Source of the DNA: a bacterium | GTDB taxonomy: Bacteria; Pseudomonadota; Alphaproteobacteria; Rhizobiales; JAKIUO01 | Reading direction: 5' to 3' | NCBI GenBank assembly: GCA_024228495.1 | Contig: JAAETJ010001069.1 | Span: 1 to 64,000 of the forward strand | DNA length: 64,000 bases | Part shown: positions 21,645 to 28,175 of the stretch, piece by piece | Layout of the letters: each line of letters begins with the position of its first letter | Position numbering within the stretch: position 1 is the first letter of the stretch | Made by a program: the position numbers and the translations under genes | The notes under the pieces: model-generated | What the model saw: the letters and a program-made list of their open reading frames with translations, nothing else | Databases searched by the model: none | Told to the model about the DNA's origin: nothing

Positions 21645-22976
21645 TATTTTTTCAAGGATGGCCTTGTTGGGGAAACAGGTAACCTCATGGCCATTTATGC
21701 TTTGCCAATTGCCAATGGAGATGCGGGTTTTATATCCGATCAGTCCATCGGCTCCTCCCACATCAGCACCAATTTTTTCCAGTTTTAACTGCGCGGCTTC
21801 AACTTGGGCTCGCGAGAAGCTCGAAAGGCGTGTCCAGTCTCGTTTGAATTTCGATCCAGCTTTCATGCGATCGGCGACATGGCCGACAAACAGCGCGTAG
21901 ACATCTGATTCATTGTAAGTTTTGAGCACATAAAAATTTTCAGAGACCAAAAAGCGAGGACCAAAACGCCCGGCCGGGAGAAATAGAAAACTGTCTTTCG
22001 ACATATCAGCGTGAGCAAACGGGTGGCCATCGGTGCGCCTCATCCCCTGTTGTTGCCACGCCAAAGTTTTGATCCGTTGATCCGGCCCCTCAAGGGTGCA
22101 TGAAATATTGGCGGGTAGCTGGACTTCAAAGCCCCAGCGCCTTGCAGGGTTCCAGCCGTTCTGATTGAGAAAATTGGCAATCGAGGCGAGAGCATCTGGT
22201 ACCGATGACCAGATGTTTATGGAGCCGTCGCCATCAAAATCAACAGCATATTTCAAGAAGGCCGTAGGCATGAACTGGGGATGACCAAGGGCACCCGCCC
22301 AGGCACTTTTCATGGTGCGCGCCGTGATATGCTTTTGTTGCAAAATGGTCAGTGCCGCCAGCAGTTCTTTTTCAAACAGAGCTTTGCGGCGTCCCATAAA
22401 GGCCTGCGTGGCCAGCACTTCAATGGCACGATAGGGAAGTCTGGCCCGACCAAACGCGGTTTCCTTGCCCCAGATGGCAATTATGACTTCTCGCGGGACT
22501 CCATAGCGTTGCTCTATCTTGTCAAGGGAGTGTTGCCATTTGACGAGCTGTTTGCGTCCCTCGGCAATATTATAGTTTAGTGATCTTGCTTTAAAATATC
22601 CGCCAGGCGCGCGAAATTCACTTTGAACGGGCGGTTTGCGGCGCGGCGCATGGCCTGGCGGACGCAAATCGGGCAGGGACCAGTTGAGCTTGACGTGCTT
22701 GAAGGCATATTGATAAGTGGCGCGCGAAATATTTTTCGAGCGGGCTTTTTGCCAAAGTGGACCTTTGATCCAGTCTGTGAACGCGTGCTCGATCTGGGCC
22801 TTGGATGAGCGTGCAACCGCCGTGGCGTTTTGGGTGACAAGCGAGACAAGCAGACATAAAATAAACCTGGTGATGGTTCTGGTTTTCATAGCGAGGTTCC
22901 GGGCAATATTTTGGGCAAAGGTTCCAGTGTTTGTGTTCTTGTTTGACGGATCAATGTGGTCAAAAGCAAGTTTCAA
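21636..22976 (-). CDS. lytic murein transglycosylase (MltB family) with C-terminal peptidoglycan-binding region
   Basis: [56 protein letters not shown]. Confidence 0.92.
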
Positions 22977-23006
22977 TATGGTTTTTTCAATGAGGGGAAA
23001 ATTTTA

Positions 23007-23528
23007 ATGCCATTATATGGGTTGGACGGGATTGAAGTAGAGCTGCCAGACGATGATTATTATATCGCGCCAACGGCGGCCCTGATTGGTAAAATACGTC
23101 TTTTGCCCGGTGCCAATATCTGGTTCGGCGTGGTGATGCGCGGCGATAATGAGCTAATTGAAATTGGCAATCGCTCCAATGTGCAAGACGGCACGGTCTG
23201 TCATACGGATATAGGATATCCGCTGACCATTGGTGATGACTGTACGGTGGGTCATCGCGCGGTTTTGCATGGCTGTACGGTAGGCGATAATTCTCTGATC
23301 GGCATAAATGCGGTGTTGCTGAACGGCTCAAAAATCGGCAAGAACTGTGTCATAGGCGCGGGGGCGTTGATCACTGAAAACAAGGAGATCCCTGACGGTT
23401 CACTGGTGGTTGGGGCGCCGGGGCGGGTCATGCGCCAATTAAAGTCCTTTGAAATCGACGCCATCAAGGCATCAGCTGCCCACTATGTTGAGAATAGCGG
23501 ACGCTATAAAAGCGGCTTGACGAGCTAG
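23007..23528 (+). CDS. gamma-carbonic anhydrase family protein (hexapeptide repeat)
   Basis: [54 protein letters not shown] left-handed beta-helix. Confidence 0.92.
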
Positions 23529-23546: not shown

Positions 23547-25469
23547 TTAGTCATCAAGGTCACTCTCGATATTGGGCAGGTTGCCATTGTGGCGGAGCAG
23601 GCTTTGTAACTCGACAAGTACCTGTTGCCAGTTGCCCAAGATTTCAACCAGCCTCTCTTCTTGAGCCTTGCACGCGCACGCGAAAATATTGAGATCACCA
23701 TTATGGATGACGCAGCTAATCGCGATATTGCCGGGATCGACGGGTTTGAACCCTTGATAGAGCACGGTTGGTGAGGCGAGAAAACTGGTATTGAACGCCT
23801 TGTTATGCATGCAGGTCCAGCCTGTAGATTCGAACAGAGCCAGCGCATCGTTGATCTCTAGTTGGGATAGGCCTCCAGAGGTCATGCGAGTCAGGAAATC
23901 CGCTTGAAAATCTTCTGGGTGGCGATTGTATATATTTAGCAATTCGGCCATATGCTGCTCGGCGACATCGCCCTTGCGGCATTCCTTGATGCGGACTTCA
24001 TGTTGCAGAGCAGCCTTTTTGAGGGCCTGGTATTTGTCACGGCTGTCTGCGCCGGTGTTGAGCATTGTGTTAACAAAATCAATTAGTTCCGATGTCAGAA
24101 CCCATAAAGACTGCACGCGGCCAAATGCAAAGTGGCGCATGGTGATATTTTGACCAACAGCAGCTGGGCGTCCAAACAGTCGCCAATGGGTAAGCTGCAA
24201 GGCGCATTGCGCAAAGGCGTCAGGAGAAATGCCATTTTGAGCCAGCAATTTAATATCGAACTCGGTGAATTGCAGGATCTTTGAAGCGATTTCTTGTTGG
24301 CGCTTTTTATACGATCTGGCTGCCCGCATGATTTTTTTCTGGAAGGCCGGGGTGAGATCAAAGGTCAGGTTTTTGCTCAGCGGCGTGCCTTGATCGCTGG
24401 CGCCAGAATATTGATCAATGCTTTGGGGATCAATACCCAGAATATAATCGAGAAAATCAACAATGGTGGCGCGATCCAGACCAGAGTGCTCTATATTGAG
24501 GCCGGCAAAACCATCGTTGAAGATGATAAATTGCAAGGATTTGTCAAACCAGCGATTGCCACTATCTCCGCTCAACAGCTGTTGGCAGGCGGCCAGATTA
24601 TCATCGGGTTTGCATTCTTCGAGTTGAATAGAAAATAGTGCGGTCTCGATCAGCTCCAGATTGAAGGCATTATTTTGTGAGCCTTGTATCAAGCTCTTGC
24701 GGGTGCGCGCCCAATCGGTTCGCGGCAGTGTGGTCAAATGGCCAATTGATCGCCCGCTTGATTGTTCGTCAAGGCTGCTATCGACAATCACTTCAAGGCC
24801 TTTTTCAATATCCTTGAGCGAATGGGGGTGGCCATCTCTCGAGATCAGCTCAAGCAGATAAATATTGCTCCGGCAAAAGACTACAATGTGGCGCGGCATT
24901 GATGAGTTGGCATCCATCCCCTTAATAGGGCTGGCACCACGTAAACTGTCGGTTTGTTCACCCGGAATCCGGGTGGTCGAAAACAGGTTTTTGAGTTGTT
25001 TTTCACACAAGATTGTGTGCCGTTTGGTGGCGATGGGTGTATGACCTTGATCAAGCACCAGCTTGTAGTTTAGCGCGGCAGCAATGAGCGCGGCAGTACG
25101 TTTGATACGGTCGGCCTCACCATGACGGAACAGGCAGAAAAAATTATCATTGATGGCGGTGGAACTGCGCTTTGCAAGAAAGCGGCTTGTCCAATAGTCA
25201 TTGAGCCAATGATTGTCATCATCCATGTCGGCCATGCTTTGCAAGCGCGCATGAAGCTGGCTGCCAAGCCCCTGTGGCTCGATGAAGGCGTTAAGGGCTG
25301 TGCGTGATTTGGCGCGCTGTTCATTGGTGAGAAATGGCGTAAACCAACGCGTCAGACAATCGGCTGAACTGGCAAGAGATGGCAGGGGGAGATGTGGAAG
25401 GGTTTTAGTCTCCTCGTTCGTTTTTCCTGCGGTGTCATCTTTTTCCATTTCTGGCTCATACTTGTTCAT
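23547..25469 (-). CDS. choline/carnitine O-acyltransferase family protein
   Basis: LPHLPLPSL N-terminus; SGNRWFDKSLQFIIFNDGFAGLNIEHSGLDRATIVDFLDYI (family signature including EH catalytic motif); FAFGRVQSLW..TSELIDFV; colinear with remembered eukaryotic carnitine acetyltransferase. Confidence 0.87.
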   Translation of the reverse strand: MNKYEPEMEKDDTAGKTNEETKTLPHLPLPSLASSADCLTRWFTPFLTNEQRAKSRTALNAFIEPQGLGSQLHARLQSMADMDDDNHWLNDYWTSRFLAKRSSTAINDNFFCLFRHGEADRIKRTAALIAAALNYKLVLDQGHTPIATKRHTILCEKQLKNLFSTTRIPGEQTDSLRGASPIKGMDANSSMPRHIVVFCRSNIYLLELISRDGHPHSLKDIEKGLEVIVDSSLDEQSSGRSIGHLTTLPRTDWARTRKSLIQGSQNNAFNLELIETALFSIQLEECKPDDNLAACQQLLSGDSGNRWFDKSLQFIIFNDGFAGLNIEHSGLDRATIVDFLDYILGIDPQSIDQYSGASDQGTPLSKNLTFDLTPAFQKKIMRAARSYKKRQQEIASKILQFTEFDIKLLAQNGISPDAFAQCALQLTHWRLFGRPAAVGQNITMRHFAFGRVQSLWVLTSELIDFVNTMLNTGADSRDKYQALKKAALQHEVRIKECRKGDVAEQHMAELLNIYNRHPEDFQADFLTRMTSGGLSQLEINDALALFESTGWTCMHNKAFNTSFLASPTVLYQGFKPVDPGNIAISCVIHNGDLNIFACACKAQEERLVEILGNWQQVLVELQSLLRHNGNLPNIESDLDD

Positions 25470-25650: not shown

Positions 25651-26040
25651 GTGACAGATTTTTTACAATATCTCCAGTCCATAAGCGAGAAAATACAAAC
25701 TATCGAGGCCGTTGAGGCCCTGGAGCACCATAAAGCTACGGATATTGGCTTTGTTGATCTGCGCGATGGCTTTGAGCTGCGCGAACATGGCCTGATCCCG
25801 GGGGCCATGCATTGCCCGCGCGGCTCGCTGGAATTTCGTATTTCTGCTAACAGCGAATATCATCATGATTTTTTCACCGGCTTCAAGCGCTTTGTTTTTT
25901 ATTGTTCTCATGGCCAGCGCTCGATTTTGGCCACGCATACGGCGCAAAACCTGGGTCTTCCAAATGTCAGCCATATACGCGGCGGCATGATTGCATGGGT
26001 AAAAGCTGGAGGCGCTGTTGAGCGCTGGACTGGCGCGTGA
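25651..26040 (+). CDS. rhodanese-like domain protein
   Basis: VDLRDGFELREHGLIPGAMHCPRGSLEF, VFYCSHGQRSILAT active-site Cys loop, HIRGGMIAWVKAGG. Confidence 0.92.
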   Translation: MTDFLQYLQSISEKIQTIEAVEALEHHKATDIGFVDLRDGFELREHGLIPGAMHCPRGSLEFRISANSEYHHDFFTGFKRFVFYCSHGQRSILATHTAQNLGLPNVSHIRGGMIAWVKAGGAVERWTGA

Positions 26041-26976: not shown

Positions 26977-27858
26977 ATGAGTGGGTTAAATCCCCTTCGC
27001 AGTGTTCTTTATGTGCCCGGTGATAATGAGCGGGCCATGACCAAATCGGCCGGTTTGACGGTTGATGCGATCATATATGATCTTGAAGATGCTGTTGCCC
27101 CTGCAAACAAGCAAGCGGCGCGCGCGCGCGTATGCCGGGCGGTTACCACAAGAGATCAGGATCAGCACGTTATAGCAATCCGTATCAATGATCTTGCCAG
27201 CAATGAGGGTGCCGAAGATTTGCAAGCAGTGCTTGGCGCTGCACCAGATGTACTTGTGTTGCCCAAGGTGCAAACGGCGCAGGATATTGAACACCTTCAT
27301 GCGAGGATAAAATCGTCTGGGGATCAAGGAATGGATCGCGCCCTTGAGATATGGGCGATGATCGAAACGCCATCGGCGATCCTCAATATCAAAGAAATAG
27401 CGGAGCGCTCGCGTATCCAGGGATACCGTCTTGGTGCATTGGTATTGGGCACAAATGATCTGGCCAAGCTGACCGGTGTGAGGCTCGATATGATGGCCTC
27501 CTGGCTGATGGATTGTGTGCTGGTCGCCAAAGCTTATGGCTTGCCGATCATTGACGGGGTTTTTAATAATTATTCTGATCAAGAAGGTTTTGCTGCGGCA
27601 TGTGAACAAGGGCGTGATATGGGGTTTGATGGTAAGACCCTTATTCATCCTTCACAGATCGCCAGTGCCAATCAAGTGTTCGCGCCGAGTAAAGTTCAGT
27701 TGCAAGAGGCATGTGAAGTGGTAGCATTATTCGAGCGTGAAGGGCATGAGAATATGAATGTACTTGAGCTTGATGGCCGCATGGTGGAGCGCTTGCATTA
27801 TCTGATGGCTAAAAAGACGTTGAAAATAGCGCAGATGATCAAGGAGCAAACGGCATGA
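26977..27858 (+). CDS. HpcH/HpaI aldolase / CoA ester lyase (CitE-like)
   Basis: RSVLYVPGDNERAMTKSAGLTVDAIIYDLEDAVAPANK; VRINDL-type motif; MGFDGKTLIHPSQIASANQVFAPS. Confidence 0.92.
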   Translation: MSGLNPLRSVLYVPGDNERAMTKSAGLTVDAIIYDLEDAVAPANKQAARARVCRAVTTRDQDQHVIAIRINDLASNEGAEDLQAVLGAAPDVLVLPKVQTAQDIEHLHARIKSSGDQGMDRALEIWAMIETPSAILNIKEIAERSRIQGYRLGALVLGTNDLAKLTGVRLDMMASWLMDCVLVAKAYGLPIIDGVFNNYSDQEGFAAACEQGRDMGFDGKTLIHPSQIASANQVFAPSKVQLQEACEVVALFEREGHENMNVLELDGRMVERLHYLMAKKTLKIAQMIKEQTA

Positions 27859-28175
27859 AATTAGCGCGTGCGCAGTCCATTGGAGCAGGAGCAGGGTTTG
27901 CGGATGCGCTGTTTGCCGATCTTGCCGAGCAGGTTGACAAGCTGCCGCTTGAGCGCTTTTGCTCCAACGGAGGCTGGCCGTTGAACGTCAAAATCAGCAC
28001 CATTGCCATTTTGGAAGATCGCCCGCAAATATTTAAAGTTATTGTCTATATTGGCTTTACTGAAACGGGCGCTGCCTGCTGCTCTGGCGATAATTTCGAA
28101 CAAGAGCATTTCGAGGAACTGTTACTCGAAATCGATAAAACAGGCTGGACGTGCGATATCCTTGCCACCGTTTAA
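27855..28175 (+). CDS. hypothetical protein, 106 aa, overlapping the CitE-like stop codon
   Basis: ATG overlaps upstream stop (ATGA-type coupling); no family recognised. Confidence 0.55.
   Translation: MKLARAQSIGAGAGFADALFADLAEQVDKLPLERFCSNGGWPLNVKISTIAILEDRPQIFKVIVYIGFTETGAACCSGDNFEQEHFEELLLEIDKTGWTCDILATV

What the first reader, a model, noticed from the sequence alone, without database searches (positions are those of the whole stretch)
23547..25469. Bacterial choline/carnitine O-acyltransferase homologue
The 640-aa minus-strand ORF is colinear with carnitine acetyltransferase-type enzymes, from the LPxLPxPxL start through SGNRWFDKSLQFIIFNDGFAGLNIEHSGLDRATIVDFLDY to the C-terminal domain. 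The EH catalytic motif is kept. The later GRT(D/E)TIRS-type motif is changed to GRVQSLWVLTS, so the acyl acceptor may not be carnitine. This family is mainly known from eukaryotes and sporadic bacteria, so its presence between a gamma-carbonic anhydrase and a rhodanese gene is unexpected.
Basis: partly seen in the sequence, partly recalled or inferred. Interest (0 to 1): 0.65.

Follow-up and report, generated by a model that had tools for sequence, protein, structure and literature searches.

The report
Bacterial carnitine-acyltransferase relative, altered active site
A rare bacterial relative of the animal enzymes that move acyl groups on and off carnitine has been kept intact across one marine alphaproteobacterial genus although most of the residues that normally hold carnitine, and in one species the catalytic histidine itself, have been replaced, so it probably does a different job.

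Summary
Window 23547-25469 (-) encodes a full-length, 640-aa member of the choline/carnitine O-acyltransferase family (PF00755, E 3e-120). A predicted model matches the whole two-domain fold of carnitine acetyltransferase (TM 0.82-0.88). The family is rare in the sampled relatives: 3 of 141 genera of the order and under 1% of the class and phylum samples. All five held species of this genus have it, always divergent from the same rhodanese gene.

Tyr452, Thr465, the Arg of 'TIRS', Glu453 and Lys423 of mouse CrAT are Gly/Ser, Val/Ile, Trp, Gln and Ala/Ser here. Arg518 is Gln, already so in the sister clade. One congener (G003) also has Gln for the catalytic His. The sister clade (~40% identical) keeps the other motifs, constrains its pocket strongly (omega 0.023), and sits in a three-gene cluster with a HalD-like Fe/2OG oxygenase and a methyltransferase-like protein; detectable homologues of both are absent from this genus. 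At matched divergence the window genus has lost that extra pocket constraint (omega 0.074) but not overall constraint (dN/dS 0.08-0.10).

Best reading: a repurposed acyltransferase fold, no longer a carnitine enzyme and possibly non-catalytic. An active enzyme with a new acceptor is a close rival.

The parts
23547..25469 (-). Choline/carnitine O-acyltransferase family protein, 640 aa, single copy
   Evidence: PF00755 E 3.1e-120; AlphaFold2 model mean pLDDT 83.3, pTM 0.85; Foldseek hits to CrAT/CROT/ChAT/CPT2 with TM 0.79-0.88
24484..24486 (-). His328 codon (CAC), equivalent to catalytic His343 of mouse CrAT; CAG (Gln) in congener G003
   Evidence: codon alignment, residue mapping; minus-strand position from residue number
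24472..24474 (-). Asp332, equivalent to Glu347 of CrAT (Asp in CROT), partner of the catalytic His; kept in all five species
   Evidence: residue mapping
24106..24153 (-). Altered acceptor motif Gly439..Val452-Gln-Ser-Leu-Trp456 (CrAT Tyr452..Thr465-Asp-Thr-Ile-Arg469)
   Evidence: residue mapping; W, Q and S of QSLW identical in all five congeners
23953..23955 (-). Gln505, equivalent to CrAT Arg518; also Gln in the sister clade
   Evidence: residue mapping
24238..24252 (-). Coenzyme A 3'-phosphate loop: Ile406 and Ala410 in place of Lys419 and Lys423; Lys407 next door is kept in all five species
   Evidence: residue mapping and alignment
23782..23790 (-). Asn560-Thr561-Ser562, equivalent to the Ser-Thr-Ser motif (552-554) of CrAT
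   Evidence: residue mapping
22956..23528 (+). Neighbour: hexapeptide-repeat, gamma-carbonic-anhydrase-type protein, converging on the gene
   Evidence: PF00132 E 3e-16; conserved next to the gene in G001, G002, G004
25651..26040 (+). Neighbour: rhodanese-domain protein, divergent from the gene
   Evidence: PF00581 E 6e-14; adjacent and divergent in all five species

Best explanation
The protein is a repurposed carnitine-acyltransferase fold. Its ancestor, shared with the sister clade, was a His-dependent O-acyltransferase that already lacked the carnitine-carboxylate Arg and so probably used another hydroxyl acceptor. In the line leading to this genus the acceptor pocket was rebuilt (Tyr to Gly/Ser, Thr to Val/Ile, Arg to Trp), part of the CoA site was lost, and in one species the catalytic His became Gln. 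The protein stayed under strong purifying selection for its overall fold. I infer that it now works mainly by binding, either an acyl-CoA or acyl-pantetheine type ligand or a partner protein, with little or no acyl transfer. Shown: family, fold, residue changes, conservation pattern, rarity, synteny. Inferred: loss or strong reduction of catalysis, and the binding role. The ligand is not identified.
For: Substitutions at Y452, E453, T465, R469, R518 and K423 mapped against CrAT. Of 30 positions invariant across seven other lineages (bacterial and animal), the window protein lost seven, including Y452, T465 and R469; G003 lost nine, including H343. Catalytic codon CAC/CAT in four species, CAG in G003. 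Overall dN/dS 0.08-0.10 among the four close species. At matched divergence, pocket segments vary at 39/203 sites here against 10/203 in the sister clade (p 1e-5), while the rest of the protein does not differ (p 0.13); omega pocket/rest 0.074/0.103 here and 0.023/0.093 in the sister clade. Stem branch of the genus 1.0 against 0.25 for the sister clade. The sister's two conserved gene partners were not detected in this genus.
Against: Four of five species keep the His, and all five keep Asp332 and Ser562. The His loop is more conserved than the rest (39/42, p 0.007). Lys407, adjacent to the lost Lys position, is kept in all five and could replace it. The His-to-Gln change rests on one base in one draft genome, and a sister draft (G001) has rpoB split over two frames, so base errors do occur. 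Pocket omega is still slightly below the rest.
Confidence: 0.47

Rival explanations
1. It is an active His328-dependent O-acyltransferase with a new acceptor, and perhaps acyl-ACP or acyl-pantetheine as donor; activity was lost only in the G003 lineage.
For: His328, Asp332 and Ser562 kept in this species; His loop conserved above background (39/42); QSLW fixed in all five species; the sister clade shows that this lineage can use a non-carnitine pocket (R518Q with the other motifs kept).
Against: No extra constraint on pocket segments other than the His loop (125/161 against 327/437, p 0.52); His lost in a congener at the same locus; no biosynthetic partner genes next to it.
Confidence: 0.38
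2. It is a choline-type or other uncharged-acceptor acetyltransferase: two specificity positions resemble choline acetyltransferase (Val for Thr465; Gln, an amide like ChAT Asn, for Arg518).
For: ChAT has GRVDNIRSAT and DNHLLAL; ChAT engineered at V459, D460, N461 and N514 gains carnitine use (PMC5054688).
Against: ChAT keeps the 'IRS' Arg, which is Trp here; Tyr452 is lost here; no choline-linked neighbours.
Confidence: 0.05
3. It is an ordinary carnitine acyltransferase.
For: Family and fold.
Against: Tyr452, Thr465, Arg469 and Arg518 equivalents all changed.
Confidence: 0.03
4. It is a decaying pseudogene or eukaryotic contamination.
For: Fast divergence of the stem branch.
Against: Intact in five species, dN/dS 0.08-0.10, bacterial synteny, composition like its surroundings, no introns.
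Confidence: 0.02

Closest known systems
Carnitine O-acetyltransferase (CrAT; 1nm8, 1ndb, 2h3p) and carnitine octanoyltransferase (1xl7)
   Same: Full two-domain fold (TM 0.81-0.88), 27-29% identity, catalytic His kept in this species, Asp430 and Ser554 equivalents kept
   Different: Tyr452, Glu453, Thr465, Arg469, Arg518, Lys419 and Lys423 all replaced; 640 aa with a distinct region before the STS motif shared only with the sister clade
Choline O-acetyltransferase (2fy2, 1q6x)
   Same: Fold (TM 0.79-0.86); Val at the CrAT Thr465 position; amide residue at the Arg518 position
   Different: Loses the Tyr and the IRS Arg; QSLW in place of DNIR
Sister alphaproteobacterial clade (G036, G077, G111, G191, G233)
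   Same: About 40% identity, monophyletic with the window genus (support 100/99), same GLSxxE..EQH..ELLNIYNR region, Gln at the Arg518 position
   Different: Keeps Tyr452, Glu453, Thr465, Arg469, Lys423 and STS; lies in a three-gene cluster with a HalD-like oxygenase and a methyltransferase-like protein
Carnitine-acyltransferase release domains of fungal highly reducing PKSs
   Same: Same family, used on non-carnitine acceptors (cited in PMC6158276, ref. 36; that paper itself was not held)
   Different: No PKS near the window gene; the PKS-linked bacterial homologues (G199, G768) are only 24-25% identical

Membership tests
PF00755 choline/carnitine O-acyltransferase family | Profile match above curated cut-off over nearly full length | tested here: met
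   402.9 bits against 22.3; positions 1-568 of 574
PF00755 choline/carnitine O-acyltransferase family | Two-domain CrAT fold | tested here: met
   Foldseek TM 0.82/0.88 to 1nm8
PF00755 choline/carnitine O-acyltransferase family | Catalytic His with acidic partner | tested here: met
   His328 and Asp332 present in the window protein; His is Gln in G003
PF00755 choline/carnitine O-acyltransferase family | CoA 3'-phosphate lysines (K419, K423; PMC11852590) | tested here: not met
   Ile406 and Ala410; a neighbouring Lys407 might substitute. Other bacterial members also vary at K419
Carnitine acyltransferase (CrAT/CROT/CPT) | Carnitine-carboxylate residues Tyr452, Thr465, Arg518 (own knowledge of the CrAT structure) | tested here: not met
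   Gly439, Val452, Gln505
Choline acetyltransferase | GRVDNIRS motif and Asn at the Arg518 position | tested here: not met
   GRVQSLWV and Gln505
Any acyltransferase (as an activity) | Measured acyl transfer | not testable with these tools
   Needs purified protein

The most novel reading that the evidence does not exclude
A genus-wide bacterial pseudo-acyltransferase: a carnitine-acyltransferase fold kept under strong purifying selection for a non-catalytic role after loss of the acceptor pocket, and of the catalytic His in one species, derived from an ancestor whose sister lineage makes an acylated, hydroxylated and possibly methylated small molecule.
Probability: 0.35. Interest if true: 0.6.

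Novelty: new variant of a known kind. Interest (0 to 1): 0.45.

Why it matters
Carnitine acyltransferases are studied almost entirely in eukaryotes. This pair of bacterial clades offers a natural comparison: one keeps a constrained active site inside a small hydroxylase/methyltransferase gene cluster, and the other has kept the fold but released the active site. That makes it testable what the fold can do without carnitine, and it points to a possible bacterial pathway for carnitine-like acyl esters in the sister clade.

Tried and rejected
Viral origin: an alignment scan of viral contigs found no relative. Recent acquisition or contamination: rejected by synteny and composition. Widespread vertical alphaproteobacterial enzyme: rejected by sampling. 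Simple vertical descent from a common ancestor of the two families only: the rpoB tree puts both in one larger supported group (99/98) but not as sisters, and other members of that group (G005, G006, G012, G028) lack the gene, so transfer and multiple loss cannot be told apart (the first version had two wrong reading frames and is superseded). Paper searches on bacterial carnitine acyltransferases returned nothing useful, which shows only that the held library lacks them. First HalD search in the genus had no positive control; repeated with one. A second structure prediction and other phyla were not run: the genome-contig scan was limited to one and returned only the near relative L007.

Full report
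What is there. The ORF at 23547-25469 (-) is exactly as described: 640 aa, one copy in a 5.1 Mb draft genome. It matches Pfam Carn_acyltransf over essentially the whole profile (E 3.1e-120) and solved CROT, CrAT, ChAT and CPT2 by sequence. An AlphaFold2 model from 14 bacterial homologues (pLDDT 83.3, pTM 0.85) matches human and mouse CrAT over both domains (TM 0.82 and 0.87-0.88). It is therefore a true member of the family, not a chance resemblance.

Distribution. The search of whole genomes found the family in 11 of 398 sampled genomes of the order (3 of 141 genera), 2 of 385 of the class sample and 3 of 399 of the phylum sample, each count including the window's own genome. All five held species of the window's genus carry it. 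Five of eight species of a second family in the order carry its nearest relatives. No relative was found in viral contigs. One near-identical record is a metagenome-assembled genome, Alphaproteobacteria bacterium isolate Dive100_bin1.47; 'Dive100' is a sample name in a study of Southwest Indian Ridge hydrothermal chimneys (PMC9769843), though that bin itself was not named in the text.

Genomic setting. The gene is divergent from a rhodanese gene in all five species, and converges on a gamma-carbonic-anhydrase-type gene in four; the fifth (G003) has a different neighbour there. Further genes (transporter, CitE-like lyase) are also syntenic. None suggests a substrate.

Active site. Residues were mapped by alignment onto mouse CrAT; numbering was anchored at His343. 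Roles of His343, Lys419, Lys423, Asp430 and Glu453 are from PMC11852590; roles of Tyr452, Thr465 and Arg518 in holding carnitine are from my knowledge of the CrAT structures. Window protein: His328 and Asp332 kept, Asp417 kept, Ser562 kept; Tyr452 is Gly, Glu453 Gln, Thr465 Val, Arg469 Trp, Arg518 Gln, Lys419 Ile, Lys423 Ala, Ser552 Asn. The sister clade has Gln at Arg518 too but keeps Tyr452, Glu453, Thr465, Arg469, Lys423 and Ser552. So the ancestor had probably already left carnitine, and the rest was lost on the stem of this genus. A Lys next to the Lys419 position (Lys407) is present in both clades and might still contact CoA. G003, 56% identical and at the syntenic rhodanese locus, has Gln (CAG) for the catalytic His. 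This is one base in a draft genome; the same genus has a draft with rpoB split across two frames, so an assembly error is possible.

Selection. Among four species 82-91% identical, dN/dS is 0.08-0.10, so the protein is not decaying. I then compared conservation in segments that line the CrAT active site with the rest of the protein, using four sister-clade proteins of the same mutual identity as control. In the sister clade 193 of 203 pocket-segment sites are invariant against 296 of 423 elsewhere (p 1e-14); in the window genus 164 of 203 against 327 of 437 (p 0.11). Omega in pocket segments is 0.023 against 0.074. The direct contrast between clades is significant in the pocket (p 1e-5) and not elsewhere (p 0.13). 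Within the window genus only the loop around the His is conserved above background (39/42, p 0.007). Pocket segments were chosen from the sequence motifs, not from coordinates, so this is a coarse test; sites within a gene are not independent, and the p values are indicative.

Phylogeny. The window genus and the sister clade form one group (100/99), and the genus stem is four times as long (1.0 against 0.25); deeper placement relative to animal CrAT/CROT is unsure because of long branches. In an rpoB tree the two host families fall in one supported larger group but are not sisters. Transfer and repeated loss remain open.

Sister clade. In all five members the acyltransferase is flanked by a HalD-like Fe(II)/2-oxoglutarate oxygenase (Pfam E about 1e-10; HxD facial motif HPWH(F/Y)D, so hydroxylase-type rather than halogenase-type) and a protein with a methyltransferase-like VDLGSSYG-type motif that no profile named. 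Neither was detected in the five genomes of the window genus, with positive controls in the sister genomes. G168, a relative without the acyltransferase, also lacks the oxygenase match. A reasonable inference is that the sister enzyme acylates a hydroxylated small molecule made by its neighbours.

Mechanism. I commit, with 0.47 confidence, to a repurposed fold with little or no acyl transfer, working by binding. The close rival (0.38) is an active enzyme on a new acceptor. They differ in what happens when His328 is removed.

Novelty. Family and fold are known; the combination of genus-wide retention with a rebuilt, weakly constrained active site and one natural His loss is a new variant. I found no report of it, but the held literature on bacterial members is almost empty and other bacterial phyla were not sampled.

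Noticed in passing
L020 7288-11026; L021 7726-11482; L022 8098-11822; L023 1244-4967; L024 7752-11677: Conserved three-gene cluster in the sister clade: methyltransferase-like protein, carnitine-type acyltransferase, HalD-like Fe/2OG oxygenase with a hydroxylase-type HxD motif. It may make an acylated, hydroxylated small molecule.
   Followed up: partly
L025 2154-11339 and L027 1879-12645: Two distant homologues (G199, G768) lie beside similar large hybrid synthases (thioesterase, AMP-binding, KS, AT, KR, carrier domains), suggesting bacterial polyketide release or capture by a carnitine-type acyltransferase.
   Followed up: partly
L018 4498-6414: Congener G003 has Gln (CAG) at the catalytic His position; single draft genome.
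   Followed up: partly
L058 (G001:C24 4161-8206): rpoB of G001 is split across two overlapping frames, probably an assembly error; a caution for single-base claims in these drafts.
   Followed up: no
window 26977-28175: CitE/RipC-like C-C lyase followed by a small unnamed protein, syntenic in the genus; family cut-offs are not met, so its substrate is open.
   Followed up: no
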